DNA of 64,000 nt from Peristeroidobacter agariperforans (GTDB taxonomy: Bacteria; Pseudomonadota; Gammaproteobacteria; Steroidobacterales; Steroidobacteraceae), in assembly GCF_004138335.1 (NCBI RefSeq), contig NZ_RYFW01000002.1, positions 1,717,501 through 1,781,500 of the forward strand, written 5' to 3'. The translations under genes were made by a program, and so were the position numbers. The notes below the pieces were generated by a model that searched no databases, was not told the DNA's origin, and was given only the letters and a program-made list of their open reading frames with translations. This document shows positions 13,053 through 27,632 of the stretch, one piece after another. Each line of letters opens with the position of its first letter. Position 1 is the first letter of the stretch.

Positions 13053-15686
13053 TTGCGTCGAGGCGATCGGTCACGTCACGGGACGGCCGGCGGCGCAGGG
13101 AGCGTGCGCGCGCTGGCAGCCGTGATGTTGCTGGCTGTGAGTCCTGTTGGGCTTTCTGACAGCGCCGGCAAGCTGCGTTTCGATATTCCATCGCAAAGTC
13201 TCGACGACGCCTTGCGCGAATTCTCGCGCCAGGCCAAACACCACTTGTTGTATCCGTCGGACGTGATTGGCGCCGATCTGCGACGCGGCCTGCGCGGCTA
13301 CTACACCGTCGAAGAAGGGCTTGCCCAACTGCTCGATCAGACCGATCTGGAATTCGTCGTCGACGGTCATGGCAGCGTCGCGATTCGCCGGCGCACCCGA
13401 GCGGTGAAAGCAGAGCAGCCGCCGACGCTGGTATCCGCAACGGCTGACAATGCCGCCGTCGATGACATCTGGCGCAGCGTCTCGATTGCGGAAGTAATCG
13501 TTACGGCTCGCCGGCGTGAGGAGAGTCTGCAGCAGGTGCCGTTGGCGGTCACATCCATCGATGCCGATGAGATCGAAGCACGCGGCATCCAGAACACCGA
13601 AGACCTGAACGCTCGCGCCCCTGGCGTCGCGGTGAATGGCGGCAACTTCTTCGGTCGAGCCAACGGGGCATTTCGAGTACGCGGTGTGCCGGGAGTCGCC
13701 GTGTATGTGGACGGCGTCGTTCGCAGCGGCTCCGCCGGATTGCTGATGAATGTGGTGGAGATCGAGCGCCTCGAAGTGCTGCGCGGTCCGCAAGGAACGA
13801 CGTTCGGCAAGAACGCCATCGGCGGCGCCATTCAATACGTCACCCGCAAGCCGCGCGAAGAGCAGGGACTGAGAATCAAGGCGACGACGGGCTCGGCGAA
13901 TCGAACGGATCTGCTCATCGACATGGACCTGCCGCTCAGCGAGACGCTGCTCAGCAAGTTCACCGCGGCCACGCTGAATCGTGACGGCTACGTCGACAGC
14001 ATCGATGGCGACTTCTCTTTCGGCGACCAGCGGGATCGATTGCTGCGCGCGGATTTGCTGTGGCGGCCGAACGAACGTTTCGACGCCTTGCTGATCGGCG
14101 AGTACGCAGTTCAGAAGAGCAACGGTACGCCCGGCGTCACCTGGCAGCTCAACCCGGTGTGCCCGGATGATCAAGTGCCAAGCAACTTCGTTGGATCGGT
14201 GCCGAACAGTGCGTGCATCTACGAGGCCGTCGGCATGCCCATCGATCCTGACTGGACCTATGGCGCGTCCGAACAATGGAAGTCTGCGGCCAATCGGCCC
14301 ATTCGTCAGAATAGTTTCGTGTCCAGCGGCGCCACGCTCGAATTGAACTGGGACGTGAGCGAGCGGCTGCACGCGAAGTCGATCAGCGGCTATCGCGAGA
14401 CCGATCTCTACGTGGGCCATGACTTCGATGGCACGCCGTATCACTTGTATCAAGCCTTCTCGGCTGCGGACCGCCAGGAGCTGAGCGAAGAATTGCAGCT
14501 GCTCTACAACGGCGAGCGGCTCACCGGCACGAGCGGCATCTACTACTACACGGACCGAAACTGGTCGAGCCGGCAGAACTGGGTCGCGAACGAGCTGCGC
14601 TTCGATCCCTATCTCAGTGCGCGTCAGGCGCTGGGCGGCCAGTACGCGGCGTACGATCCGATGATCATCGATTCATTGACGGAGGCGCGCAGCGAAGGCT
14701 GGGCCGTGTTCGCCGAATGGACCGCGAGGCTCACGGGCAAACTGTCCGTCAGCGTGGGTGCTCGCTACACGCAGGACGACATCACGCAGAACTATTATCG
14801 CCCGCGTCATCCGTTGGCGGAGCAGTGTTGCATGCCGACGCGCTCGGTGAGTCCGGACGGTCCGAAGCTCGAGAACAATTCCGGAAGCGCGACCTTTGAC
14901 GAAGTGTCGCCGCGTATCTCGATTCAGTACCGGTGGTCGCCGGATGTGATGACGTACTTCACTCGCTCGTCCGGTTTCAGCGCAGGCGGCTTCAGCGGCG
15001 GCAACGTGCCGTTTCTGCCGAATGGCGGTTTCCTGCCCTTCGGACCGGAAACGTTGATCTCCAACGAGATCGGCGTTCGCGCCGATCTGCTCGATCGTCG
15101 CCTGCGACTCAACGCCACATTGTTCGATGGCGAATACGATGACGTGCAGATCACGGAGGAACTGCAGGAGGCGCCGGGATTTCCGGTCACCACCAATGCC
15201 GGCGAAGGTCGCATCCGAGGTCTGGAGCTGGAAGGAGCGTGGAATGTCACCAAGCAGCTCACGTTGCAGTATGGCGCGAGTTGGTTGCACACCGAATTTA
15301 CCGAAGTGGGCCGTGCCAAGAATCTGGAGCTCGGGTCCGAGTTCGCATACTCGCCCGAGTTCGCGTATTCGATCGGCGCACAGTATGACTGGAGCTTACC
15401 GGCCGGCAATGCATTGAGCGCGCGCTTCGACTACGGCTGGCAGGATCGCGTGTTCACTCAGTCGGATATCAACACGCGCTCCCAGCAGCGCGCCTACGGC
15501 GTCGGCAATGCTCGACTGTCCTATCGGGATGCGCGCAATCGCTGGGAAGTGTCGCTGTTCGGCAGCAATCTGTTCAACGAGTTCTATCGCATCAACGGCT
15601 TCTTCCTGCCCGCCGATCAAATCGACACCGGCACGCCAGGACGGCCGCGCGAGTGGGGGCTCTCGGTGCGTTATGCCACCAACTGA
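13053..15686 (+). CDS. TonB-dependent receptor with N-terminal STN signalling domain (FecA-type)
   Basis: This 877-aa receptor starts at TTG with a GGGGGA ribosome site. It has a signal peptide (to about 33), an STN domain at about 36-93 (KLRFDIPSQSLDDALREFSR), a TonB box/plug region (IAEVIVTARRREESLQQVPL; VLRGPQGTTFGKNAIGGAIQ) and a beta-barrel ending WGLSVRYATN. STN domains contact FecR-like anti-sigma factors, and a FecI/FecR pair lies 2.3 kb downstream (17975-19662), so substrate binding may switch on the locus. The barrel is clearly paralogous to the receptor at 30059, which lacks STN. Maleylacetate reductase follows after 62 nt, implying an aromatic ligand or a conjugate of one (inference). 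Confidence 0.93.
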   Translation: MRRGDRSRHGTAGGAGSVRALAAVMLLAVSPVGLSDSAGKLRFDIPSQSLDDALREFSRQAKHHLLYPSDVIGADLRRGLRGYYTVEEGLAQLLDQTDLEFVVDGHGSVAIRRRTRAVKAEQPPTLVSATADNAAVDDIWRSVSIAEVIVTARRREESLQQVPLAVTSIDADEIEARGIQNTEDLNARAPGVAVNGGNFFGRANGAFRVRGVPGVAVYVDGVVRSGSAGLLMNVVEIERLEVLRGPQGTTFGKNAIGGAIQYVTRKPREEQGLRIKATTGSANRTDLLIDMDLPLSETLLSKFTAATLNRDGYVDSIDGDFSFGDQRDRLLRADLLWRPNERFDALLIGEYAVQKSNGTPGVTWQLNPVCPDDQVPSNFVGSVPNSACIYEAVGMPIDPDWTYGASEQWKSAANRPIRQNSFVSSGATLELNWDVSERLHAKSISGYRETDLYVGHDFDGTPYHLYQAFSAADRQELSEELQLLYNGERLTGTSGIYYYTDRNWSSRQNWVANELRFDPYLSARQALGGQYAAYDPMIIDSLTEARSEGWAVFAEWTARLTGKLSVSVGARYTQDDITQNYYRPRHPLAEQCCMPTRSVSPDGPKLENNSGSATFDEVSPRISIQYRWSPDVMTYFTRSSGFSAGGFSGGNVPFLPNGGFLPFGPETLISNEIGVRADLLDRRLRLNATLFDGEYDDVQITEELQEAPGFPVTTNAGEGRIRGLELEGAWNVTKQLTLQYGASWLHTEFTEVGRAKNLELGSEFAYSPEFAYSIGAQYDWSLPAGNALSARFDYGWQDRVFTQSDINTRSQQRAYGVGNARLSYRDARNRWEVSLFGSNLFNEFYRINGFFLPADQIDTGTPGRPREWGLSVRYATN

Positions 15687-15748
15687 ATTGTCGACGCTCG
15701 CCCCCCTGCAAAGTATTAGCTTCGGTGGAGCGTCAGCTGGAGGGTCGA

Positions 15749-16810
15749 GTGCCACCCTTTGTATTTGAAATCGCGCGCCTGAGGGTGGTCTCGGGCAGGG
15801 GCAGTCGAGCTCGCCTCGGCGAAGAGGTCACCGTGCTCGATCGCCGGCGACAACTCATCATCGTCAGCCCCAGTCATGCAGAGACCGCCGCGCAGGTTGC
15901 CGCAACGCTGGGTGATCGCTGCGTTGGCATCTACGACAAGGTCGTTCAGCACGTGCCCGCCGCCGTGGCCGCCGCCGGCGTTGCTCACGCACGCAGCGTC
16001 GAAGCGGACGGTTGTATCGCGATCGGCGGCGGATCGGCGATCGGCTTGGCGAAAGCCATTGCACTGGAAACGGGTTTGCCCATCATCGCCGTGCCGACCA
16101 CGTATTCCGGTTCGGAGATGACAGCTGTGTGGGGCATCACGATGGACGGCGTGAAGCGCACGGGCAAGGATGAAAGAGTTCTACCGCGCTCCGTCGTCTA
16201 TGACGCCGAGTTGACCGCGACCTTGCCGGCGAAGATTGCCGGGCCGAGCGGAATGAATGCGCTGGCCCATCTCGTCGAAGGCTTGTACGCGCAGAACGCC
16301 AATCCAATGATGTCGACGCTCGCGCAGGAAGGCGTTCGCGCCATCGCGCGGGCCTTGCCCAGCGTCTGCGCGAACCCAGGCGATCTGGATGCGCAGGAAG
16401 AGATGCTCTATGGGGCTTGCCTTGCGGGCATTCTGCTCGGCTCGACGGGCATGTCGCTGCATCACAAGCTGTGTCACACGCTGGGCGGAACGTTCAACAC
16501 GCCTCACGCCGAGACGCACGCCGTCGTGCTTCCTTATGCAACCGCTTTCAATATGCCGGCCGCGACGGATGCCCGTCATCGCTTGACGGTCGCATTGGGC
16601 ACGGAGGCGATTGCCAGCACTCTTCATGCGTTGGGTGCCGCAGTGGGCGCGCCGCGTTCGCTGCGTGAGTTGGGACTGAGTCCTGACGATCTGGATCGTG
16701 CCGCCGAGATCGCGACGCGCACGCCTTATTTCAACCCGCGTCCGGTAACGCGCGATGCCATCCGGCAGTTGCTCGAGGACGCTTACCACGGAGTCGTGCC
16801 CAGCCCATGA
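15749..16810 (+). CDS. Maleylacetate reductase
   Basis: This 353-aa member of the iron-containing alcohol dehydrogenase superfamily reduces maleylacetate to 3-oxoadipate with NAD(P)H, the last specific step of hydroquinone and hydroxyquinol catabolism. Visible features are the nucleotide-binding CIAIGGGSAIGLAKAIA, the PTTYSGSEMTAVWGIT block typical of maleylacetate reductases, and SGMNALAHLVEGLY with HHKLCHTLGG near the active site. The GTG at 15749 is preceded by GGAGGG and gives the usual length of about 350 aa. The stop overlaps the ATG of the dioxygenase downstream (ATGA), so the two are translationally coupled. Confidence 0.93.
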   Translation: MPPFVFEIARLRVVSGRGSRARLGEEVTVLDRRRQLIIVSPSHAETAAQVAATLGDRCVGIYDKVVQHVPAAVAAAGVAHARSVEADGCIAIGGGSAIGLAKAIALETGLPIIAVPTTYSGSEMTAVWGITMDGVKRTGKDERVLPRSVVYDAELTATLPAKIAGPSGMNALAHLVEGLYAQNANPMMSTLAQEGVRAIARALPSVCANPGDLDAQEEMLYGACLAGILLGSTGMSLHHKLCHTLGGTFNTPHAETHAVVLPYATAFNMPAATDARHRLTVALGTEAIASTLHALGAAVGAPRSLRELGLSPDDLDRAAEIATRTPYFNPRPVTRDAIRQLLEDAYHGVVPSP

Positions 16811-17646
16811 CTCAACTCAATTCGAATCAGCTGCTGCTAGAGCAGGTCATCGCCGCCTACAGCCGGACGGACAACGAACGCTGGAACACAGTGATCGAGA
16901 GTCTGTTGCGTCACCTGCACGGCTTCGCGAACGAGGTCGAGGTGCGTCCGGAGGAGTGGTGGACGGCGATCGATTTTCTGACGCGCACCGGTCAATCGTG
17001 CATCGGCCCGCGTCAGGAGTTCATTCTGTTGTCGGATGCGCTCGGGTTGAGCTCGGCCGTCGACAACCTCAACAACGCCTCCTCAGCAGGCGCGACCGAA
17101 TCCGCTGTGACCGGTCCGTTCTATGCGCCACATTCGCCATACATCGAAAACGGCGGCAGCATTGCGCTGGCGGGCGAGGGTGAGACGGTTTTGATTCGCG
17201 GCCGGGTGCTCGATACCGACGGCAAGCCCATCGCGGGCGCCGAGCTGGACATCTGGCACACCTCACCCAATCAGCTGTACGCAGTTCAAGACCAGAGCCA
17301 GCCGGAGATGAACTTCCGCGGCAAGCTGCGAACGGCCGCTGACGGCGCTTTTGCGTTCCGGACGATCAAGCCGATTGCTTATCCGGTGCCGGTGGATGGG
17401 CCCGTCGGTCAGCTGTTGGGCAAGGCGGGGCGGCATCCGATGCGTCCGGCGCACATTCATTTCATCGTCAGCGCTGCAGGCTATCGATCGGTCACGACGC
17501 AGCTGTTCACTCGCGGCGACGAGTACATCGATTCGGACGCGGTGTTCGGAGTCAAGAATTCGCTGCTCATCGACTACCAGCGCAACACCGACCGTTCGCT
17601 GGCGGTGGACTGGCTGCTCGCACATGATTTCGTGCTGGCCGGGTAG
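16807..17646 (+). CDS. Intradiol ring-cleavage dioxygenase, probable hydroxyquinol 1,2-dioxygenase
   Basis: This 279-aa enzyme has the N-terminal helical dimerisation domain of catechol-type dioxygenases (about 10-105). The catalytic sandwich carries the Fe(III) ligands Tyr158 (PNQLYA), Tyr192 (AYPVP), His216 and His218 (RPAHIHF). GPFY at 103-106 and LDIWHTSPNQLY are hallmark segments. Coupling to maleylacetate reductase points to hydroxyquinol (1,2,4-trihydroxybenzene) as substrate, giving maleylacetate directly. Catechol 1,2-dioxygenase is the main alternative, but no muconate cycloisomerase is present. All metal ligands are intact. Confidence 0.9.
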   Translation: MTQLNSNQLLLEQVIAAYSRTDNERWNTVIESLLRHLHGFANEVEVRPEEWWTAIDFLTRTGQSCIGPRQEFILLSDALGLSSAVDNLNNASSAGATESAVTGPFYAPHSPYIENGGSIALAGEGETVLIRGRVLDTDGKPIAGAELDIWHTSPNQLYAVQDQSQPEMNFRGKLRTAADGAFAFRTIKPIAYPVPVDGPVGQLLGKAGRHPMRPAHIHFIVSAAGYRSVTTQLFTRGDEYIDSDAVFGVKNSLLIDYQRNTDRSLAVDWLLAHDFVLAG

Positions 17647-18607: not shown

Positions 18608-19662
18608 GCGACCGAGACCTCAAGAGCAGTAGCTCAACAGACATCCGCGCGGTGGAAGCCGCTGCGGCCCGTTGGTTCGTCCGGCTGCACGATCATCCGG
18701 TCAGCCGCGAGACCGAAGCTGAATTCGATGCCTGGCTCGACCAGGCCGCCGAGCATCGCGAGTGTTACATGCGGTGCGAGCTGGTGACGGCGATGGGGCG
18801 TGGCCTGGCCACCGAGGCCGAGCTGCAGGCGGATATTGATTTCGTTGCGGCGATTGCCGCCCGAGAGGCGGCCGCTCAAGAACGCTCACGTCGTTTCCGG
18901 GAAAAGCGCTCGATCTGGTTGAGCGCCGCGGCGACGGTGCTCCTGATGGTCGCGACCGGCGCGTATTTCTTCACGCACCACGTCGAGACGCAGATTTATC
19001 AAACGCAGGTCGGCGAGCAGCGGCGCGTGGTGCTGGCCGATCACTCGACGGTCACGTTGAACACCGACACCGTGCTGACAGTGAAGCTCTCCGACGAATC
19101 GCGTCGGATCGAGATGCAGCGGGGCGAAGCATTCTTTTCTGTCGCACATGACACCTCGCGTCCGTTTGAAGTGATAGCGGCGGGTGGATTGGTGCGCGCC
19201 GTGGGGACCGAGTTCGGTGTCGAGATGAAACGGGATGGTGTGACGGTGTCGGTGCTCGAAGGCGCGGTCGTGGTGCTGCCCAAAGAGTCCGATTCCGTGG
19301 CCGGCGTGCCGCACCTGACCGCCAACATGGCGGTGAGCTATGGGGGCGGCGGCGGGATCGGCGCGGTGCAAGCGGCCGACGTGAGGCGCATCACCGCTTG
19401 GCGCGAAGGCAAGCTGGTGTTCGACCAGGTGCCGTTGGCCGATGCCATCGCCGAGTTCAACCGCTACTCGCCTCGGAAGGTGCAGGTGAGCTCGGCGAGC
19501 GTCGGCAGCCGTCCCGTGAGCGGGGTGTTGCAGATCGGCGATATGAGCTCGTTGCGCTTCCTCCTGCAGGAGTCGCTGGGCCTGAAGCTGATCGATCAGG
19601 GCGACACGCTGCTGCTGCAGGCCGCGCCGGAGAGCAACCAAACAGGGGATGCCAGACGATGA
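18604..19662 (+). CDS. FecR-family anti-sigma factor
   Basis: This 352-aa protein has an N-terminal DUF4880-like cytoplasmic segment (AARWFVRLHDHPVSRETEAEF...W), one membrane helix at about 103-122, and a periplasmic FecR domain. The periplasmic part shows QVGEQRRVVLADHSTVTLNT and DTSRPFEVIAAGGLVRAVGTEF, then a C-terminal STN-like/DUF4974 part (KLVFDQVPLADAIAEFNRYS). FecR proteins hold or activate their FecI sigma factor in response to a liganded receptor. The start overlaps the sigma stop (ATGA). The stop overlaps the ATG of the dioxygenase small subunit, so regulator and catabolic genes are co-translated. Confidence 0.92.
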   Translation: MSDRDLKSSSSTDIRAVEAAAARWFVRLHDHPVSRETEAEFDAWLDQAAEHRECYMRCELVTAMGRGLATEAELQADIDFVAAIAAREAAAQERSRRFREKRSIWLSAAATVLLMVATGAYFFTHHVETQIYQTQVGEQRRVVLADHSTVTLNTDTVLTVKLSDESRRIEMQRGEAFFSVAHDTSRPFEVIAAGGLVRAVGTEFGVEMKRDGVTVSVLEGAVVVLPKESDSVAGVPHLTANMAVSYGGGGGIGAVQAADVRRITAWREGKLVFDQVPLADAIAEFNRYSPRKVQVSSASVGSRPVSGVLQIGDMSSLRFLLQESLGLKLIDQGDTLLLQAAPESNQTGDARR

Positions 19663-20171
19663 CTGCGGAATTTCAAACGGCCGGATTTCAAACCGTGTTC
19701 GGCTCGCTGCAGGACTATGCCAAGGGCGAGCTCGAGATCATCAACGACAGCCCGAAGAACTACGCGTTCTCGAATGTCTTTGACGTTGCTTCGCGCTCCG
19801 CTGCGTATGAGAAGGTGGTGGTGGCGATCAACCTGGGCTACGTGCTCGAGACGCTGCGGGCCGAAGGCACGTCGCCCTGGTTTGCGGCCTCGCACGACGA
19901 GTTCGCGATCGTGATGGACGGCGAGGTGGAGGTGGAACTGGTGAAGCTCGAGGCTCCAGCGGCGCCGGCATCGAAGAGGGGCACGGTCCAGCTGTCCGGC
20001 GCTCCGGTCGGACGAAGGATGGGACACGTCAAGTGCAAGCGTGGCCACCAGGTGTTGCTGCCGCAGGGCGCGGCTTACCGCTTCAAGGCGGCGCGCCCGG
20101 GCGTGATTCTGTTGCAGACCATCGAAGGCGAGCTGTCGAAGCAGAAGTGGCGAGAGATTTGTTACACCTGA
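19659..20171 (+). CDS. hapC: Hydroquinone 1,2-dioxygenase small subunit (HapC/PnpC-like)
   Basis: This 170-aa cupin-like protein corresponds in length and position to the small subunit (about 18 kDa) of the two-component hydroquinone 1,2-dioxygenase from 4-hydroxyacetophenone and 4-nitrophenol degraders. That enzyme opens hydroquinone to 4-hydroxymuconic semialdehyde and needs Fe(II). Visible features are YAKGELEIINDSPKNYAFSN, SPWFAASHDEFAIVMDGEVEVE and a final GVILLQTIEGELSKQKWREI. The small subunit pairs with the large subunit encoded 11 nt downstream. ATG 19659 overlaps the FecR stop. I recognise the pair rather than individual ligands; the subunit is thought to support an active site in the large subunit. 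Confidence 0.85.
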   Translation: MTAEFQTAGFQTVFGSLQDYAKGELEIINDSPKNYAFSNVFDVASRSAAYEKVVVAINLGYVLETLRAEGTSPWFAASHDEFAIVMDGEVEVELVKLEAPAAPASKRGTVQLSGAPVGRRMGHVKCKRGHQVLLPQGAAYRFKAARPGVILLQTIEGELSKQKWREICYT

Positions 20172-20182
20172 GGGCGAGAACA

Positions 20183-21178
20183 ATGAGTGCATTGGACGTG
20201 GTGGCGTCACCCGCGAGCAACGAAACCGGCTATCGCAGTTTCCAGCTCGGCAGCTTCTCGTTCAGCCGCGACGAATATTTCGTGCGCGTCGGCTGGGAGG
20301 CGAACGGCCAGCAGCTCTCCCACAAGATGTCGGCTGATGCGTTCCTGCGAGCCGTCATGCGTGATGTCGCCTGGGGCTTCTTCTACGGCTGGGTGAATTT
20401 CGACGCGATGATCGGCACGCGCAATCTCTACGGCAAAGTGGAGTTCTACGCCGGCACTTACAACCCGGCGTACAAAGAGCGCGGCCTCGATCACACGGAG
20501 ACGTTCGATTCGCGCCAGATCATGGCGACCTTCAAGGCCATGCTGGATGACTGGACCAACGAGGGCTTCGATCCATTCGCCGCGCCGGATGAGACGAGCA
20601 AGAGCTGGCTGGGCAAGAAACGTGGCAACAATCGCGGCGCCATCGAGCGTGAGCGTCAGGCGTGCAAGCGCATGCCGGGATTGCCGGGCGATGCGGAGCT
20701 GCGCACCGATGCGAACGGTTATCCGGTAAATCGCGCATTCGCCGATGTTTCTCAAGACGAACCGGAGATTCATGCCGAGCCCGGCTTCGAGGACGAGCTG
20801 CACGCGTTCAGCCTGTTCGCTTATCTGTCGCGCTCGGACGTGACGTGGAATCCCTCGGTGTCCTCCGTGCTCGAGCGCAGCCTGTGCTGCCCGACGACCG
20901 AGGAATACATCCTGCCGATCAAGCACGGCAACGATCGCGTCGAATGGTTCATCCAGCTGAGCGATGAGCTGGAATGGCAGATCGAGGACAAGAACACCGG
21001 TGCGCCGCGCGCCAAGGTGATCATGAAGGCCGGCGACGTCGCGGCCATGCCGGCGGACATTCGCCATCAAGGCTTCTCCAAGAAGCGCTCCATGCTGCTG
21101 GTGTGGGAGAACGCCACGCCCGAGCTGCCGCAGCTGTACGAGAGCGGCAAGCTGAAGCCGTATCCGGTGGAATTCTAG
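20183..21178 (+). CDS. hapD: Hydroquinone 1,2-dioxygenase large subunit (HapD/PnpD-like)
   Basis: This 331-aa protein (about 38 kDa) matches the large subunit of HapCD/PnpCD. Characteristic segments are FQLGSFSFSRDEYFVRVGWE, FFYGWVNFDAMIGTRNLYGKVEFYAG and a C-terminal cupin with ILPIKHGNDRVEWFIQLSDELEWQIED and DVAAMPADIRHQGFSKKRS. The enzyme belongs to a separate structural class of Fe(II) ring-cleavage dioxygenases, distinct from intradiol and vicinal-oxygen-chelate enzymes. The His and acidic residues of the C-terminal cupin are likely iron ligands; I do not assign them individually. AGGGCGAG upstream of the ATG is a fair ribosome site. The dehydrogenase for its product follows after 93 nt. 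Confidence 0.87.
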   Translation: MSALDVVASPASNETGYRSFQLGSFSFSRDEYFVRVGWEANGQQLSHKMSADAFLRAVMRDVAWGFFYGWVNFDAMIGTRNLYGKVEFYAGTYNPAYKERGLDHTETFDSRQIMATFKAMLDDWTNEGFDPFAAPDETSKSWLGKKRGNNRGAIERERQACKRMPGLPGDAELRTDANGYPVNRAFADVSQDEPEIHAEPGFEDELHAFSLFAYLSRSDVTWNPSVSSVLERSLCCPTTEEYILPIKHGNDRVEWFIQLSDELEWQIEDKNTGAPRAKVIMKAGDVAAMPADIRHQGFSKKRSMLLVWENATPELPQLYESGKLKPYPVEF

Positions 21179-21271
21179 ACCTCCGACTCCGGTTGTTTTC
21201 CCAATCGAAGCACAACACACCGTTGCCGATGGTGGCAACGGCAACGGGGCACTATTGCCCGCGAGTTGACC

Positions 21272-22741
21272 ATGACACTGCAGACCAAACTGTACATCGG
21301 CGGCGAATTCGTCGACGCGCTCGACGGCGCGACGCTGGACGTCATCAATCCATTCGACGGCTCGGTGATCGCCAGCGTCGCGGAGGCCAAGGCCGCTGAC
21401 GTCGATAGGGCGGTGGCAGCGGCAACCAAGGCGTTTCCAGCCTGGCGCGCGATGCCGGCCATGCAACGCGGTCGTTTGCTAGGCAAACTGGCCGATGCGA
21501 TCGAAGCGCACGCGGAGGAGCTCGCGGAGCTCGAATCGATCGACACCGGCCATCCGATTCGCGACACCAAGGGTCTCGACGTACCTCGCACGGCGGTGAC
21601 GTTTCGTTACTTCGCCGGCATGGCCGATAAGCACCAGGGCAGCGTGGTGCCGGTCGAAGCAGGTTTCCTGAATTACGTGCAGCGGGAGCCGGTCGGAGTC
21701 GTCGGGCAGATCGTTCCCTGGAATTTCCCGTTGATGTTCACCAGCTGGAAGATGGGTCCGGCGCTCGCGGCCGGCAATACGGTCGTGTTGAAGCCGGCGG
21801 AGATCACGCCGCTGTCGACATTGAAGATTGCGCAGCTGATGGCGGAAGTCGGTTTCCCGCCCGGCGTGGTCAACATCATCCCTGGCTTCGGTCACACGGC
21901 CGGTCAGCATCTGGCCGAGCACCCCGGCGTGCAGAAGATCGCGTTCACCGGCTCGACGGCCGTCGGTCGGCGCATCGTGCAGGCGTCGGCGGGCAATCTG
22001 AAGCGCGTGCAGCTGGAATTGGGCGGCAAGGGCGCGAACATCGTGTTCGCCGATGCAAATCTGCCGGCGGCTATCAATGGCAGCGCCTTCGCGATCTTCC
22101 ACAATCAAGGGCAGGCGTGTATCGCGGGCTCGCGATTGCTGCTGCAAGAAGACATCGCGGCGCCGTTCCTCGAAGGTTTCCTCAAGCTGGCCAGGTCCAT
22201 CAAGTTGGGCGATCCATTGGATCCGACGACCGAGATGGGGCCGCTCACGTCGCAGAAACAACAGCAGAGCGTGCTCACCTACTGCGAGGTGGCGAAACAG
22301 CAGGGCGCTGAAGTCATTACCGGCGGACGCAAGCCGGAAGCGGCAGCATTGTCGAAAGGCTTCTTCGTCGAGCCCACGATCGTCAAAGCGCAGCCGAAGG
22401 ATCGCGTATGCCAGGAAGAGGTGTTCGGGCCGTTCGTTTCGGTCACTACGTTCAAAGACGAGGCCGAAGCCGTCGCGATTGCCAACTCGACCGAGTATGG
22501 CCTCGGCGGCGGCTTGTGGACGACGAACCTGCAGCGTGCGCATCGCATGGCGGGCACGATGCGGGCGGGCATGGTGTGGATCAATAGTTACAAGCGCGTC
22601 AACCCCGGCTCGCCGTTCGGCGGCGTCGGCAGCTCCGGCTACGGACGCGAGATGGGCTTCGAAGCCATGCACGACTACACCGAAGCAAAGTCGGTGTGGG
22701 TCAACGTGGACGCACAGATTCCTCCTCATTACCCGCGCTGA
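21272..22741 (+). CDS. hapE: 4-hydroxymuconic semialdehyde dehydrogenase (aldehyde dehydrogenase)
   Basis: This 489-aa NAD(P)-dependent aldehyde dehydrogenase has Glu at about 249 (LELGGKGAN) and the catalytic Cys at about 283 (GQACIAGSR). It also has the NAD-binding FTGSTAVGRRI and the PWNFPLMFTSWKMGPALAAG segment. Next to the hydroquinone dioxygenase subunits, its expected job is oxidation of 4-hydroxymuconic semialdehyde to maleylacetate, which maleylacetate reductase then uses. General ALDH similarity alone would not fix the substrate; context does. ATG 21272 is preferred over the in-frame TTG two codons upstream. Confidence 0.85.
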   Translation: MTLQTKLYIGGEFVDALDGATLDVINPFDGSVIASVAEAKAADVDRAVAAATKAFPAWRAMPAMQRGRLLGKLADAIEAHAEELAELESIDTGHPIRDTKGLDVPRTAVTFRYFAGMADKHQGSVVPVEAGFLNYVQREPVGVVGQIVPWNFPLMFTSWKMGPALAAGNTVVLKPAEITPLSTLKIAQLMAEVGFPPGVVNIIPGFGHTAGQHLAEHPGVQKIAFTGSTAVGRRIVQASAGNLKRVQLELGGKGANIVFADANLPAAINGSAFAIFHNQGQACIAGSRLLLQEDIAAPFLEGFLKLARSIKLGDPLDPTTEMGPLTSQKQQQSVLTYCEVAKQQGAEVITGGRKPEAAALSKGFFVEPTIVKAQPKDRVCQEEVFGPFVSVTTFKDEAEAVAIANSTEYGLGGGLWTTNLQRAHRMAGTMRAGMVWINSYKRVNPGSPFGGVGSSGYGREMGFEAMHDYTEAKSVWVNVDAQIPPHYPR

Positions 22742-22743
22742 GC

Positions 22744-23121
22744 GTGAGTTGGAAATCGCATCCGTACGCCCCGGCAGCGGACACCGAAGTGTGTTCGCTC
22801 GATGCGGTGCCGGATGGCGGGTGCGTCGAAGTCGGCTTCGGTGTTGACGGGCAGGCGCTGCGACTGATTGTCCTGCGCAGCGGCGACGAGGCGTGGGCCT
22901 ACGTGAATGTTTGTCCGCATTTCTCGCTGCCGTTGAACTCTCGTCCGGGCGAGTTCCTCGTGACGGCGGATCGGCATCTCATGTGCGCGTATCACTGCGC
23001 GTTGTTTCGATTTCACGATGGCCTGTGCGTCGATGGGCCGGCGAAAGATCGCAGCCTCGAGGCGGTGCCTGTGACCGTCGTCGACGGTGTCGTGCGGATC
23101 GGCGTGGCGGGTGATCGATGA
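22744..23121 (+). CDS. Small Rieske [2Fe-2S] protein
   Basis: This 125-aa protein carries the Rieske ligands in CPH (about residue 59) and CAYHC (about 81-85), the C-x-H...C-x2-H pattern of ferredoxin-like Rieske proteins. GTG at 22744 lies 2 nt after the dehydrogenase stop. The stop overlaps the ATG of the AAA+ gene, so it is tightly inside the operon. No oxygenase large subunit of the Rieske type is present, so it is not a simple hydroxylase ferredoxin. By analogy with XylT/NahT, which re-reduce oxidised iron in extradiol dioxygenases, it may keep the HapCD iron ferrous (inference). Confidence 0.85.
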
Positions 23122-24065
23122 GCGACGATGCCGAACTGTTCGCGCTGCCGGACACGACCGTGTCGTTGCGAATGGCCTTTGGCATCGATCGCGAGGGCGT
23201 CGTGCCGGCCTTCAGTCGGCGCAACGATCATGTGCCGCCGGTGGATGCTTCCTATCGCTTCGATCCTGAAACGACGCTCGCCATTCTTGCCGGCTTTGCT
23301 CACAACCGGCGCGTCCTGGTGCAGGGATATCACGGCACGGGCAAGTCGACGCATATCGAGCAGGTGGCGGCGCGGCTCAATTGGCCGTGCGTTCGAATCA
23401 ATCTCGATGGGCATGTCAGCCGGATCGATTTGATCGGCCGAGACGCCATTGTCATTCGCGAGCACCGGCAGGTGACGGAGTTTCAGGAAGGCATCCTGCC
23501 TTGGGCGTTGCGCCGGAACGTTGCGTTGATTTTCGATGAGTACGACGCAGGGCGGCCGGATGTGATGTTTGTTTTGCAGCGGGTGCTCGAAGCGGAGGGC
23601 TCGCTGACGTTGCTCGATCAGAACCGGGTTATTGCGCCGCATGCGTGCTTCAGGCTGTTCGCAACGTCGAACACGATCGGGTTGGGGGATGCGAGCGGGC
23701 TGTATCACGGCACGCAGCTCATCAACCAGGGGCACCTGGATCGGTGGCATATCGTTGCGGTGCTGAACTATCTGAAGCCGGTGGTGGAAATGGCCATCGT
23801 GCGCGCTCGGGTGCCGGCGTTTGCGGATCGATGGCCGGAGGCGATCGAGTTCATGGTGATGCTCGCTGGATTGATCCGACAGGCATTCGTGGCCGGAGAT
23901 ATTTCGACGGTGATGTCGCCGCGGGCGGTCATCTCGTGGGCGGAGAATGCGGTGATCTTCGGTGATCTGAGGCGCGCGTTCGAGCTCAGCTTTTTGAACA
24001 AGTGCGACGAGTCCGAGCGGGCGGCGGTCATGGAACTGCATCAGCGCTGCTTTGGGGGTGCCTGA
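23118..24065 (+). CDS. CobS-like AAA+ ATPase (MoxR/CobS family)
   Basis: This 315-aa AAA+ protein is very close to the CobS subunit of aerobic cobaltochelatase. It has FGID near the start, Walker [10 protein letters not shown] at about 70-78, [20 protein letters not shown], Walker [16 protein letters not shown] at about 137-151, and the [20 protein letters not shown] sensor segment. CobS works with CobT and CobN to insert cobalt into the corrin ring. Here there is no CobN or any other corrin gene; the pair sits in a dioxygenase operon. Related AAA+/VWA pairs (NorQ/NorD, CbbQ/CbbO) activate or metallate enzymes. It overlaps both neighbours by 4 and 1 nt. Confidence 0.88.
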
Positions 24066-25681
24066 TGCCTGGCGCTCCCGGCACTGAAGTACGGCTGGGG
24101 CGGCTGAAGCATGCGTCGTTGACGACACTGAAGGCGATCAGTCATGTCGCCGATCCGCCGGGAGCGGCTGCGCTCATCGAAGCGATACGACAACTGCCGG
24201 GCGACTCCGATGCGCTCGCCATCTGGCGAGGTCGAGTGGATGCGCACGCGTTGAGATTGAGATTCAACGATCCGGCACTGCACGCCGAGTTGCGTCCTGC
24301 CGGCGCGGCGGCGCCATTGTTTGATGCGCTCGAGCAATGTCGAGTCGAGGCGCTCGGTGTAAGACTCTTTCCAGGTGCTCGCGTCAACCTGCGTGCGTTC
24401 CATGGTGCTTGTCCGGTGGATGTCGAGCGTCGAGCGAAGCTCGACGATGCCATGATCGGGCTGGCACCACTGATCTTCGATCAACGGGCGTTCGGCACAG
24501 AAGCCGCCAGGCTTGCAGCCGCGATCGCGCGCGGCGAGCGAAACGACACCGAAGAGCCGGAGGAGCCGAGCGACCGGCCTGATGGTGCTGTAGAAACGCA
24601 GCAGCGGAATTTCACTGAGGTGCAAGCGGAGCGCGCACAGGTAGACATCCTGCGTCGAATCAGCAATGAACCTCGCGGCCGCGTCGTGCCAAGACGAACG
24701 CCTCGTCAAGCAGGCGAGCCCGGCTATCGCGCCTTCACCCAACAGTTCGACGCCGTCGTCGACGCATCCTCCTTGATCGACGACGCGATGCGACGAGACC
24801 TGTTGCGCCAGTTCGATGACATATCGACGACATCGCGCAGACACGTCAGCCGCTGGGCACATCGCCTGCAGCGTTATCTCCTCTCACGCCAGCGTCGAGC
24901 CTGGACCTTCGATTGTGAAGAGGGGCTGCTCGACTCCGGCCGTCTCGCCCGCGTCGTCTGCGATCCTTCACTGCCGTTGTTGTTCAAGCAGGAAACCGAC
25001 ACCGACTGGCCCGAAACCGCCGTCACCCTCCTGATCGACAACTCCGGCTCGATGCGAGGCGCGCCCATCGTGATCGCATCTGTCTGCGCCGAGCAGCTGG
25101 GCGCCGTGCTCGAGCGCTGCGGAGTCACGACAGAAATTCTCGGCTTCACGACCCAACGCTGGCGTGGCGGGCGCAGCCGCGAACGCTGGATCGCAGAGCG
25201 CCGGCCACCGAACCCGGGCCGTCTCACCGACCTGAATCACATCATCTATAAGTCCGCCGACGTTCCGTGGCGGCACGCTCGCCGCAACCTCATCGCGATG
25301 CTCGATGAATCCTTGCTCAAGGAGAACGTCGACGGGGAGGCGCTGCTCTGGGCCTACCAGCGGCTGCGTCGCCGGCCCGAGCGCAGAAAAATCCTGATGG
25401 TCATTTCCGACGGCGCGCCGCTCGACGGTGCAACGCTGTCAGCAAACGATTTCGGTTACCTGGACCGGCACCTGCGCTCGGTCATCGAAGCGCTCGAAGC
25501 CGACAGCGCCTTCGAGCTGCTGGCGATCGGCATCGGCCACGATGTCGGCTCCTACTATGCCAATGCGTTTACTGTTACCGAGCCCCAAGAACTCGGCGAA
25601 GCCATGGTGAGGCAGCTCGTTGCACGACTGAAGGATGGCGGCAACAGCCGACAGCGGACGGTTCGCGGGTCGAGCCTATGA
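24065..25681 (+). CDS. CobT-like VWA-domain protein
   Basis: This 538-aa protein has an N-terminal helical region, an acidic low-complexity patch (NDTEEPEEPSD, about 160-172), and a C-terminal von Willebrand factor A domain. The MIDAS motif DNSGSMRG is at about 325, and HARRNLIAMLDESLLKENVDGEALLWAY and ILMVISDGAPLDGATLS are CobT hallmarks. CobT is the VWA partner of CobS and forms a chaperone-like hexamer. It is shorter than typical cobaltochelatase CobT (about 630 aa). It starts 1 nt inside the CobS-like stop. With CobN absent, a metal-loading or activation role for the local Fe dioxygenase is proposed (inference). Confidence 0.88.
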   Translation: MPGAPGTEVRLGRLKHASLTTLKAISHVADPPGAAALIEAIRQLPGDSDALAIWRGRVDAHALRLRFNDPALHAELRPAGAAAPLFDALEQCRVEALGVRLFPGARVNLRAFHGACPVDVERRAKLDDAMIGLAPLIFDQRAFGTEAARLAAAIARGERNDTEEPEEPSDRPDGAVETQQRNFTEVQAERAQVDILRRISNEPRGRVVPRRTPRQAGEPGYRAFTQQFDAVVDASSLIDDAMRRDLLRQFDDISTTSRRHVSRWAHRLQRYLLSRQRRAWTFDCEEGLLDSGRLARVVCDPSLPLLFKQETDTDWPETAVTLLIDNSGSMRGAPIVIASVCAEQLGAVLERCGVTTEILGFTTQRWRGGRSRERWIAERRPPNPGRLTDLNHIIYKSADVPWRHARRNLIAMLDESLLKENVDGEALLWAYQRLRRRPERRKILMVISDGAPLDGATLSANDFGYLDRHLRSVIEALEADSAFELLAIGIGHDVGSYYANAFTVTEPQELGEAMVRQLVARLKDGGNSRQRTVRGSSL

Positions 25682-25707
25682 AGACAAAGTACGAACAGAG
25701 TTCCGCG

Positions 25708-26025
25708 ATGGTAAAGCACCTGGTGATGTGGCGCTTGCGAGCCGCCGAGAATGGCGAGCGCGCCGAGCAATTAGCGTCGATCGCGCGGGCCATCGAAGCC
25801 ATGCGCAACGGTATTCACGGCCTGCAGCGGGTCGAGCTGGGGCGCGATCAGTCGCAGGTCTCCGACTCGGCCGACCTGGTTCTGTACTGCGAGTTCGACA
25901 GCTGGGCGGCGCTGCAGGCGTACGAAACCCATCCGCTGCACGAGCAGCTCAAACGTTTGATCGGGCCGCTGCGCGTCGAGCGCCGCGTGGTCGACTACGA
26001 AACCAGCATGACATTGGACGCATGA
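25708..26025 (+). CDS. Dabb (stress-responsive alpha/beta barrel) domain protein
   Basis: This protein of about 105 aa starts MVKHLVMWRLR, the usual opening of Dabb-domain proteins, and includes VELGRDQSQVSDSADLVLYC and HPLHEQLKRLIGPL. Dabb dimers form small ligand-binding barrels; relatives include polyketide cyclases and EthD-like proteins. An upstream ATG at 25678 overlaps the CobT stop and would add ten residues, so either start may be used. The gene is part of the same operon. Binding or protecting a reactive quinone or semialdehyde intermediate is a possible role (inference). Confidence 0.8.
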   Translation: MVKHLVMWRLRAAENGERAEQLASIARAIEAMRNGIHGLQRVELGRDQSQVSDSADLVLYCEFDSWAALQAYETHPLHEQLKRLIGPLRVERRVVDYETSMTLDA

Positions 26026-26039
26026 CATTCGGGGGAACA

Positions 26040-27632
26040 ATGAAAAGTCGATTGGTTCATGTGCTCGCGACGCTGCTCTCGGGCGCGCTGACACTCGGGG
26101 CGATGCAGGCGCAGGCGTCGAGTGACGACAAGGCCATCGTGACGGCCGCAGCCGAAGCGCTGGGCGGACTCGAAAGAGTGCGCTCCGTCAAAAACATTAC
26201 GCTGTCCGGCTATGGCCAGTACGCCTACATGTTTGGCGGCGGCAACATCAGCGGCTCGCCCGAGGCGCCGCAGAAGTATCAGGCAGCGAACGATCTCAAG
26301 CGCGTCTACGACCTGGAGCACGGCCGCTTTCAGCAGCTGGAACGGCGCAATTTCCTGTTCCCATTCGCGGCGATCTTCGGCCATGCGTTTGCACAGGCGA
26401 ACCTGGTGCTCGACGGCGACATCGGTTATGAGACCGGGCGCGATGGCCAGTTCGTCCGCTCGCGCCAGTGGATCGAAAGCCCGTTACACGTCGATGGCGT
26501 GCACATGCGCCGCATGTGGATGTTGAACAATCCCGTGGCGTTGGTGCGTGCGGCCCTGGACCCGGCCAACCAACTCGGCGCGCCCCGTAAGGAAGGCGAT
26601 CTCACGGTGCTCGATCTCACCCTGAAGCAGGGAGACAAGCTGAGTTTCGCCATCGACGGTCGTTCCAAGCTGCCGACCTGGGTGCGCTGGAAGAACCCGC
26701 ACAGCAACCTGGGCCAGGTGACGCTGACGACGCACTTCAGCGGCTACGCGCCGTATGGCGGTCTGAAGATGCCGCTGGGTTACGTCACTCGCATCGACTG
26801 GCGCAACGTCGATTATTTCAAGATGTATGTCGATGACTATGTCGTCGACACTCAGATCGCCGATCTCGCCGCGCCCGAGTCGGTGCGCTCCGGCTCGGAT
26901 GCCGATCCCGCTGTCACATCCGAAGCAACGCAGGTCGCGCCGGGCGTGTGGCGTCTGACCCCGTACGGCAATACCGTGTTCGAGTTCGCCGATCACCTGG
27001 CGATCTACGAGCTCGGCGGCAGTCATGCCGCGGCCAAGGCGGCGATCGACAAGGCGCGTACGCTGGTGCCAGGCAAGCCGCTCACCGAATATATTCCTTC
27101 GCATCACCACTTCGATCACACGGCGGGATTTCGCGTCGGCGTGGCTGAGGGCCTCACTGTCGTTTCCCGCTTTGGCAACGAAGGCATCTTCCGTGAGATG
27201 GCTGAACGACGTGCGCCGGATTATCCGGACGCGCTGGAAAAGAACCGCAAGCCCTTCAAGTTCCGCGGCTTCGACGATCACCTGCGCATGTCGGATTCGA
27301 AGGCCACCGTCGATTTGTACTGGGCGCGAGCGAACACGCACATGGCCGACGCGGTGTTTGCGTATGTGCCGGCTTCCAAGGTGTTCGTTGAAGGCGATAT
27401 GGCTACGGCCGCCAAGGATTATCAGTTCTGGGGCGACAACTACATGGACAACGTCGAGCACTACAAGCTCGATGTGGACGTACTCTCGACCGTTCACATG
27501 GGCATCATGAAGCCTGCGGAGGTGATCGAGATGGTGAAGGGCGGTGTGCAGCGGGCCCGCGAGCGTTGCGCGGCCGAGCTTGCGAAGGGCAACTACTTCC
27601 CGGGTTGTCCCATCGTCAGCAATCGCTATTGA
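26040..27632 (+). CDS. Exported metallo-beta-lactamase-fold hydrolase
   Basis: This 530-aa protein has a signal peptide (to about 25, ending MQAQA). An N-terminal domain of about 270 residues follows (LGGLERVRSVKNITLSGYGQ), reminiscent of outer-membrane lipoprotein carrier-like folds. The C-terminal MBL domain has an intact zinc motif at about 355-360 (SHHHFDHTAGF, the HxHxDH pattern), unlike the degenerate copy at 11025. GGGGGAAC lies just upstream of the ATG. It closes the operon and is followed by a strong hairpin. The substrate is unknown; being periplasmic, it may release the aromatic from a conjugate before or after receptor-mediated uptake (inference). Confidence 0.82.
   Translation: MKSRLVHVLATLLSGALTLGAMQAQASSDDKAIVTAAAEALGGLERVRSVKNITLSGYGQYAYMFGGGNISGSPEAPQKYQAANDLKRVYDLEHGRFQQLERRNFLFPFAAIFGHAFAQANLVLDGDIGYETGRDGQFVRSRQWIESPLHVDGVHMRRMWMLNNPVALVRAALDPANQLGAPRKEGDLTVLDLTLKQGDKLSFAIDGRSKLPTWVRWKNPHSNLGQVTLTTHFSGYAPYGGLKMPLGYVTRIDWRNVDYFKMYVDDYVVDTQIADLAAPESVRSGSDADPAVTSEATQVAPGVWRLTPYGNTVFEFADHLAIYELGGSHAAAKAAIDKARTLVPGKPLTEYIPSHHHFDHTAGFRVGVAEGLTVVSRFGNEGIFREMAERRAPDYPDALEKNRKPFKFRGFDDHLRMSDSKATVDLYWARANTHMADAVFAYVPASKVFVEGDMATAAKDYQFWGDNYMDNVEHYKLDVDVLSTVHMGIMKPAEVIEMVKGGVQRARERCAAELAKGNYFPGCPIVSNRY

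What the first reader, a model, noticed from the sequence alone, without database searches (positions are those of the whole stretch)
19659..25681. Hydroquinone 1,2-dioxygenase operon with a dedicated CobS/CobT-like AAA+/VWA pair
HapC/HapD-like subunits, the semialdehyde dehydrogenase, a Rieske protein and CobS- and CobT-like proteins are joined by very short or overlapping junctions. CobS keeps its Walker motifs and CobT its MIDAS motif, but no CobN or corrin gene is near. Related AAA+/VWA pairs (NorQ/NorD, CbbQ/CbbO) activate or metallate enzymes. The proposal is a new metal-loading or reactivation system for the unusual Fe(II) dioxygenase class. I do not recall a described example of this pairing.
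Basis: partly seen in the sequence, partly recalled or inferred. Interest (0 to 1): 0.88.

Follow-up and report, generated by a model that had tools for sequence, protein, structure and literature searches.

The report
Helper ATPase pair for ring-cleaving dioxygenase
Some bacteria carry, inside the gene cluster that breaks down hydroquinone, two genes that look like the motor half of the vitamin B12 cobalt-inserting machine, and the evidence suggests this motor has been redirected to load or repair an iron-dependent ring-cleaving enzyme.

Summary
The operon is real: hapC, hapD, an aldehyde dehydrogenase, a Rieske ferredoxin, cobS-like and cobT-like genes (19659-25681), then an overlapping Dabb gene. 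CobS keeps Walker A/B; CobT keeps its MIDAS. Twelve distinct loci have Rieske-cobS-cobT at -14 to +54 and -8 to +38 bp. In 296 genomes of the order, 9 of 11 HapD genomes have CobT (20 of 296 overall); in 8 of 11 the pair lies in the hap cluster. It is the only CobS/CobT pair in its genome. None of 9 hap-linked genomes has CbiC or a CobN above curated cut-offs, although unlinked CobST genomes of the order lack these too. Hap-linked CobS form one clade; hap-linked CobT lie outside the cobaltochelatase-type clade and have a shorter linker. One genome has a second CobST pair in a B12 locus. The modelled VWA domain is nearest NorD, which helps load non-haem iron. Best reading: an ATP-driven iron-loading or reactivation machine for HapCD, working with the Rieske ferredoxin. 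Client and chemistry are inferred. Against: 73 of 80 sampled hapD loci show no linked pair, and a Burkholderia HapCD made in E. coli is active with added iron. CobST without CobN is common elsewhere.

The parts
19659..20171 (+). HapC, hydroquinone 1,2-dioxygenase small subunit
   Evidence: phmmer to PDB 4zxa_A E 1.4e-61 and 5m21_A E 2.7e-52
20183..21178 (+). HapD, hydroquinone 1,2-dioxygenase large subunit; keeps H248-x-N250-x3-E254 (that these are iron ligands is recalled, not tested)
   Evidence: PF18191 E 3.4e-66; 4zxa_W E 1.2e-152; residues
21272..22741 (+). aldehyde dehydrogenase, presumably 4-hydroxymuconic semialdehyde dehydrogenase
   Evidence: PF00171 E 2.1e-182; no curated equivalog cut-off reached among the 25 of 43 NCBIfam families shown
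22744..23121 (+). Rieske [2Fe-2S] ferredoxin, GTG start (an upstream GTG at 22696 is possible)
   Evidence: PF00355 E 7.3e-9; CPH-x21-CAYH motif; junctions
23118..24065 (+). CobS-like AAA+ ATPase
   Evidence: TIGR01650 505 bits, below cut-off 558.55; PDB CobS 9ujv E 6.6e-136
23325..23351 (+). Walker A of CobS-like protein (GYHGTGKST)
   Evidence: present in 8 of 8 aligned hap-type CobS with T/S and Y/F changes in some
23526..23546 (+). Walker B of CobS-like protein (LIFDEYD)
   Evidence: DEYD present in 7 of 8 aligned, the eighth (L014) has an assembly gap there
24065..25681 (+). CobT-like protein: helical N-domain, short linker, VWA domain
25037..25051 (+). MIDAS DxSxS (D325-S329), completed by T363 (25151-25153) and D449 (25409-25411)
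   Evidence: invariant in all 28 aligned CobT; residues checked
25678..26025 (+). Dabb (stress-responsive A/B barrel) protein, overlaps cobT by 4 bp
   Evidence: PF07876 E 5.9e-20; found behind cobT in 8 of 12 hap-linked loci
15653..16810 (+). iron-type alcohol dehydrogenase, presumably maleylacetate reductase (pathway context; start codon not settled)
   Evidence: PF25137 and PF00465; maleylacetate role inferred
16807..17646 (+). intradiol (catechol/hydroxyquinol type) dioxygenase (pathway context)
   Evidence: PF00775 E 3.8e-43

Best explanation
The CobS-like ATPase and CobT-like VWA protein are a dedicated maintenance machine for this lineage of HapCD. The CobS ring is coupled to CobT, and the CobT N-domain and MIDAS grip the oxygenase. 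ATP-driven movement strains the enzyme so that Fe(II) can be loaded, or so that a dead iron or inhibitor can leave and be replaced; the Rieske ferredoxin supplies electrons to keep the iron ferrous. Shown here: the conserved gene block, intact ATPase and MIDAS motifs, separate ancestry from cobaltochelatase-type pairs, and lack of CbiC and of a curated CobN. Inferred: that HapCD is the client, that iron is the cargo, and the opening mechanism (borrowed from NorQ/NorD).
Against: CobST is linked in 7 of 80 GTDB hapD loci (6 of the other 73 end less than 5 kb past hapD), so HapCD in general does not need a linked pair. Burkholderia PnpCD made in E. coli is active, with 0.04 mM Fe2+ in the assay (PMC4879640, passages). 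Rieske-CobS-CobT is tighter than HapD-CobST: in L017 HapD and ALDH are 4 kb apart with opposite-strand genes between, and in L015 the ALDH lies elsewhere. The ten unlinked CobT genomes of the order tested also lack CbiC and a curated CobN, so that lack does not single out the hap type. In the CobS tree the cobaltochelatase-type clade is poorly supported (93/63). The HapD residues that mark the CobST-linked lineage (P95, W142, K247, E268) may be ancestry only. HapD genome G136 has no CobT match (88% complete). No activity or binding was tested.
Confidence: 0.5

Rival explanations
1. The client is the Rieske ferredoxin, not HapCD: CobST assembles or docks the Rieske protein, which then reactivates HapCD.
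For: Rieske is the gene next to cobS in 12 of 12 loci, even where ALDH or HapD moved away (L015, L017).
Against: A similar Rieske gene lies in the same locus (up to 10 kb) in 52 of 75 HapD loci without CobST, so the protein generally does without a linked pair; the CobST-linked Rieske shows little that is special to it (2 positions).
Confidence: 0.17
2. The pair is an ordinary cobaltochelatase motor that serves a CobN encoded elsewhere.
For: CobS/CobT are its nearest solved relatives and the motif positions are kept; the genome has a CobN-like gene over Pfam's family cut-off.
Against: CbiC is absent from 21 of 21 genomes. Of six genomes with CobN-family hits, three have BchH by curated cut-off and a fourth has a protein 99% identical to one of them; the other two are below every curated CobN cut-off listed. 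Both window proteins fall below the curated CobS and CobT cut-offs and the pair branches outside the cobaltochelatase-type clade (CobT). Genome G100 has a second CobST pair beside BtuR and CobV.
Confidence: 0.05
3. The pair acts on the aldehyde dehydrogenase or another operon enzyme (for example the Dabb protein) as a general MoxR-like chaperone.
For: An ALDH gene also sits next to cobS in two loci without hap genes (L126, L134), and one lies about 5 kb from cobS in an Xsc-linked locus (L244).
Against: ALDH genes are common and need no metal (recalled); in L015 the ALDH is about 7 kb from HapD while HapD, Rieske, CobS and CobT stay together. Dabb is not found behind cobT in 4 of 12 loci.
Confidence: 0.1
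4. CobST clears a bound inhibitor (benzoquinone adduct or dead-end product) from HapCD, as the Rubisco activase CbbQO does (role recalled), and does not handle metal at all.
For: Turnover inactivation of a hydroquinone dioxygenase was not reversed by Fe(II), and benzoquinone inhibits it strongly (PMC3222310, passages). The CbbQ relation is weak but present (PDB 5c3c E 1.8e-6).
Against: The closest fold relative is NorD of the metal-inserting NorQD.
Confidence: 0.18

Closest known systems
Cobaltochelatase CobS/CobT (motor of CobNST)
   Same: Nearest sequence relatives (PDB 9ujv, 9uka); same gene order; Walker, MIDAS and many invariant residues kept.
   Different: Below curated CobS and CobT cut-offs; shorter linker, on average less acidic; CobT outside the cobaltochelatase-type clade; no curated CobN and no CbiC in the 9 hap-linked genomes searched.
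NorQ/NorD (iron insertion into NO reductase)
   Different: CobS/CobT sequence type, not NorQ/NorD (NorQ match only E 2.3e-5); soluble dioxygenase instead of a membrane haem/non-haem enzyme.
CbbQ/CbbO Rubisco activase
   Same: AAA+/VWA pair that restores an inactivated enzyme (role recalled).
   Different: Only weak sequence relation (5c3c E 1.8e-6).
hapCDEFGHIAB / pnp operons (order of hap genes from PMC3727088, passages)
   Same: HapC, HapD, usually the ALDH, and in 52 of 75 CobST-free HapD loci a Rieske ferredoxin in the locus.
   Different: Those loci show no CobST; in the window the Rieske gene lies directly behind the ALDH and overlaps cobS.

Membership tests
cobaltochelatase CobNST (TIGR01650/TIGR01651) | CobS above curated cut-off 558.55 bits | tested here: not met
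   505 bits
cobaltochelatase CobNST (TIGR01650/TIGR01651) | CobT above curated cut-off 759.05 bits | tested here: not met
   463.2 bits
cobaltochelatase CobNST | a CobN partner (curated cut-off) in the same genome | tested here: not met
   own CobN-like protein passes the Pfam family cut-off but none of the curated CobN cut-offs listed; in the hap-linked genomes the CobN-family hits are BchH or divergent
cobaltochelatase CobNST | corrin ring pathway (CbiC/CobH) in the genome | tested here: not met
   0 of 21 genomes, own included; CbiC was the only corrin enzyme searched
cobaltochelatase CobNST | branches among CobN-associated CobS/CobT | tested here: not met
   CobT: 48-row clade 100/100* excludes all 12 hap rows; CobS: hap clade 99/91*, the other clade only 93/63
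cobaltochelatase CobNST | ATP-dependent cobalt insertion into the corrin | not testable with these tools
   needs biochemistry
MoxR-class AAA+/VWA metal-loading pairs (NorQD type) | AAA+ with Walker A/B encoded beside a VWA protein with MIDAS | tested here: met
MoxR-class AAA+/VWA metal-loading pairs (NorQD type) | VWA domain fold of NorD | tested here: met
MoxR-class AAA+/VWA metal-loading pairs (NorQD type) | inserts metal into the linked enzyme | not testable with these tools
   needs biochemistry
HapCD hydroquinone 1,2-dioxygenase | HapD N-domain PF18191 and full-length match to solved HapCD/PnpCD | tested here: met
HapCD hydroquinone 1,2-dioxygenase | hydroquinone ring cleavage | not testable with these tools
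   needs biochemistry

The most novel reading that the evidence does not exclude
The CobS/CobT pair is a free-standing ATP-driven metal-loading and repair module that has been recruited to several unrelated enzymes: HapCD here, corrinoid methyltransferase and sulfoacetaldehyde clusters in other gammaproteobacteria, and an unknown BolA/DnaJ-linked client in alphaproteobacteria that lack CobN. Cobalamin synthesis would then be only one of its jobs.
Probability: 0.4. Interest if true: 0.88.

Novelty: new variant of a known kind. Interest (0 to 1): 0.73.

Why it matters
AAA+/VWA pairs that load metal are known for a few clients. A pair of cobaltochelatase type tied to a soluble ring-cleaving iron dioxygenase would add a client class. 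It would also offer an explanation for how cells cope with an enzyme that dies in oxygen and during turnover, and it would question the automatic annotation of CobS/CobT as vitamin B12 genes in genomes without CobN. The system is small and probably soluble, so it is directly testable in E. coli.

Tried and rejected
Chance neighbourhood: rejected, since the block recurs in 12 distinct loci. Ordinary cobaltochelatase: rejected on cut-offs, CobT tree, lack of CbiC and reclassified CobN hits. I first read the six CobN-family genomes as having CobN; neighbours and NCBIfam showed three to have BchH, and a fourth has a protein 99% identical to one of them (the second, N-terminal hit in that fourth genome, L161, was not classified). 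A search for Mg-chelatase/ChlI-type motors in the own genome gave four hits, none on the stretch beside the CobN-like gene. Special residues in hap-type CobT: none at the thresholds used; two in CobS. Adaptation of HapC: one position only. Hap-type CobT as one clade: neither shown nor rejected (AU p 0.296). In the first CobS and CobT trees with far outgroups the hap rows came out as a grade. CobT structure: the fold search covered residues 244-529 only, so the N-domain was barely tested; a sequence profile of hap CobT matches CobT 9uka along its length. 9uka did not appear in the fold lists shown; I do not know whether it is in that library. Genome-level searches for CobN and CbiC were not made for the organisms of L012, L014 and L015. 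Literature: no paper held both 'hydroquinone dioxygenase' and 'cobaltochelatase' or 'CobS'. Searches were seen as listings. Four papers were opened: PMC13036017 (abstract, outline, passages), PMC3222310, PMC3727088 and PMC4879640 (passages); none was read whole.

Rows dropped: 7 of 71 long-branch or outgroup rows before the careful CobT tree. Twelve of the 71 loci gave no CobS row of 200 aa or more (59 rows), and 7 of these 59 were left out (52 rows). L152 and L154 (contig ends) were left out of the 75 'without' loci. G208 (a 99-aa match at 7.4e-5) is in the count of 20 CobT genomes but was not among the 21 genomes, and is left out of the recount. The 10 weakest CobT genomes were left out of the 129. 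Columns of the linker were set by eye.
Full report
What is there. The window lies on contig C10 of a 7.65 Mb genome. Its HapD is 99% identical to that of Steroidobacter agaridevorans. On the + strand run hapC, hapD, an aldehyde dehydrogenase, a Rieske ferredoxin, cobS-like, cobT-like and a Dabb-domain gene. The last four overlap by 4, 1 and 4 bp, which suggests translational coupling. Upstream are an iron-type alcohol dehydrogenase (probably maleylacetate reductase), an intradiol dioxygenase and an ECF sigma factor. This is a hydroquinone-type catabolic region.

Conservation of the block. Of 80 hapD loci found in GTDB genomes, 7 carry CobS and CobT with hapCD: Steroidobacter, Povalibacter, four MAGs labelled Gammaproteobacteria and one labelled Proteobacteria. 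Six of the other 73 end less than 5 kb past hapD. An order-level survey added more. In 296 genomes, CobT was found in 20 (one of these, G208, is a weak fragment), HapD in 11, both in 9. In 8 of the 11 HapD genomes CobST lies downstream in the hap cluster; in one of them (G124, the same contig as L017 by length) HapCD is 4 kb from the ALDH-Rieske-CobST part, with opposite-strand genes between. In G259 the contig ends inside the Rieske gene, so CobST cannot be seen. G136 has no CobT match. G010 has hapCD-ALDH-Rieske without CobST and an unlinked pair elsewhere. G112 has ALDH-Rieske-CobST on a contig that ends inside the ALDH. Fisher's test on co-occurrence gives 2e-10, but related genomes are not independent. 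Altogether 12 distinct loci (four were fetched twice, recognised by equal contig lengths) have Rieske-cobS-cobT at -14 to +54 bp and -8 to +38 bp. The HapD tree (88 rows) puts 11 CobST-linked HapDs in one 16-row group (SH-aLRT 93), together with two contig-truncated rows, two alphaproteobacterial rows and G136.

Not the B12 enzyme. The own genome has one CobT match and one full CobS match, no CbiC, and one CobN-like protein on another contig. That protein passes Pfam's family cut-off but none of the curated CobN or BchH cut-offs listed. It starts with a hydrophobic stretch (by eye) and sits near PF02277, CobV and a histidine phosphatase, a B12-salvage set. Over 21 genomes, CbiC was absent in all and CobN-family hits occurred in six. 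Three of the six are BchH by curated cut-off (G118, G138, G261), and the long hit of G152 is 99% identical to G118's. G000 and G100 are divergent; G100's lies beside a TonB receptor and an ExbB-like gene. So none of the nine hap-linked genomes has a CobN that passes a curated cut-off; two of the nine are under 86% complete (G112, G124). The same holds for the ten unlinked CobT genomes tested, so this lack alone does not mark the hap type. G100 is a useful internal control: it has the hap-linked pair and a second pair next to BtuR, a histidine phosphatase and CobV. It is a draft genome with 3% estimated contamination, so this needs checking.

Ancestry. In the careful CobS tree (52 rows) all 12 hap-linked CobS form one side of a branch, 99/91*, in 98% of bootstrap trees; the cobaltochelatase-type rows also form one side, but with weak support (93/63). 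In the careful CobT tree (64 rows) all 12 lie outside a 48-row clade (100/100*) that holds alphaproteobacterial CobT with and without CobN and the gammaproteobacterial CobT of loci without hap genes. Whether hap CobT is one clade or a grade is open (AU p 0.296). Two subgroups (window, L012, L013, L014; and L016, L017, L023) recur in the HapD and CobT trees, which fits inheritance as a unit. CobT changes fast: 52% identity to Povalibacter where HapD has 92%.

How it probably works. NorQ and NorD are needed to insert iron into NO reductase, and NorQ remodels a NorD linker (PMC13036017, abstract and passages). A hydroquinone dioxygenase from Sphingomonas loses activity in oxygen, is partly restored by Fe(II) and ascorbate, and loses activity with its substrate in a way Fe(II) did not restore; its authors mention ferredoxins for reducing the iron (PMC3222310, passages). 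A ferredoxin plus an ATP-driven AAA+/VWA pair would deal with both faults: reduce the iron, and open the protein to load iron or expel what blocks it. I give this 0.5. The step from operon to client is inference. The Rieske gene is the closest partner of cobS, so the Rieske protein is a strong rival client.

Against. In 73 of 80 hapD loci no CobST was found. A Burkholderia PnpCD expressed in E. coli is active, in an assay with added Fe2+ (PMC4879640, passages). So the pair is not a general need of HapCD. CobST-linked HapDs carry P95, W142, K247 and E268 in 11 of 11, each in at most 10% of 75 others. K247 stands next to H248, which I recall as an iron ligand. This could be client adaptation or only shared ancestry.

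Wider picture. In 398 Pseudomonadota genomes, 129 have a strong CobT match; 75 of these have a CobN-family match and CbiC, 14 a CobN-family match only, 40 neither. The CobN count is if anything too high, as the family also matches BchH. Genomes with and without CobN interleave in the CobT tree. I viewed the neighbours of 8 of the 40 alphaproteobacterial loci fetched and tested 7 proteins from 5 of them: DnaJ-domain genes in L209, L219, L226 and L235, and bolA in L209, L214 and L226, near cobS. Other gammaproteobacterial CobST lie beside corrinoid methyltransferase genes (L126; MttB also in L132) or beside sulfoacetaldehyde acetyltransferase (L240, L241, L244). I did not test these further.

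Verdict. I found no paper linking the two in the library searched.

Noticed in passing
The genome search phylum sample; L200-L219: CobT without a CobN-family match or CbiC in 40 of 129 strong-CobT Pseudomonadota genomes, including a 1.2 Mb genome (G654). DnaJ-domain and BolA genes lie near cobS in the five loci tested, with or without CobN.
   Followed up: partly
L126, L131, L132, L134: Gammaproteobacterial CobST near methyl-transfer genes: MttB, B12-binding protein, RACo-type activator, MTHFR and FAD/GCV_T oxidoreductase in L126; MttB in L132; homocysteine methyltransferase family in L131; L134 has similar FAD oxidoreductases by eye. No CbiC in these genomes.
   Followed up: partly
L240, L241, L244: A divergent CobST type sits next to sulfoacetaldehyde acetyltransferase (TIGR03457, above 1000 bits); L244 also has Pta, TauE and an ALDH.
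   Followed up: partly
L242: Divergent CobST with a sulfatase and a formylglycine-generating-enzyme family gene downstream.
   Followed up: no
L007:8445-12752: Divergent CobN-like protein with a hydrophobic N-terminus (by eye) in the window's own genome, near B12-salvage genes; in PDB it matches ChlH, CobN and the HmuS haem dechelatase.
   Followed up: partly
window 25678-26025: Dabb-domain protein overlaps cobT and follows it in 8 of 12 hap-linked loci; role unknown.
   Followed up: no
window 26040-27632: 530-aa protein without any Pfam or NCBIfam match at E 0.001, with histidine motifs that look like a metallo-beta-lactamase fold (by eye); also found in L012 and L014.
   Followed up: no
L154 (G205:C96) and L122 (G205:C42): Genome G205 has two HapD copies (78% and 80% to the window); one is with CobST, the other ends 91 bp before its contig end.
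   Followed up: no
HapD residues P95, W142, K247, E268 (window 20183-21178): Residues that mark the CobST-linked HapD lineage (11 of 11; each at most 10% of 75 others).
   Followed up: no
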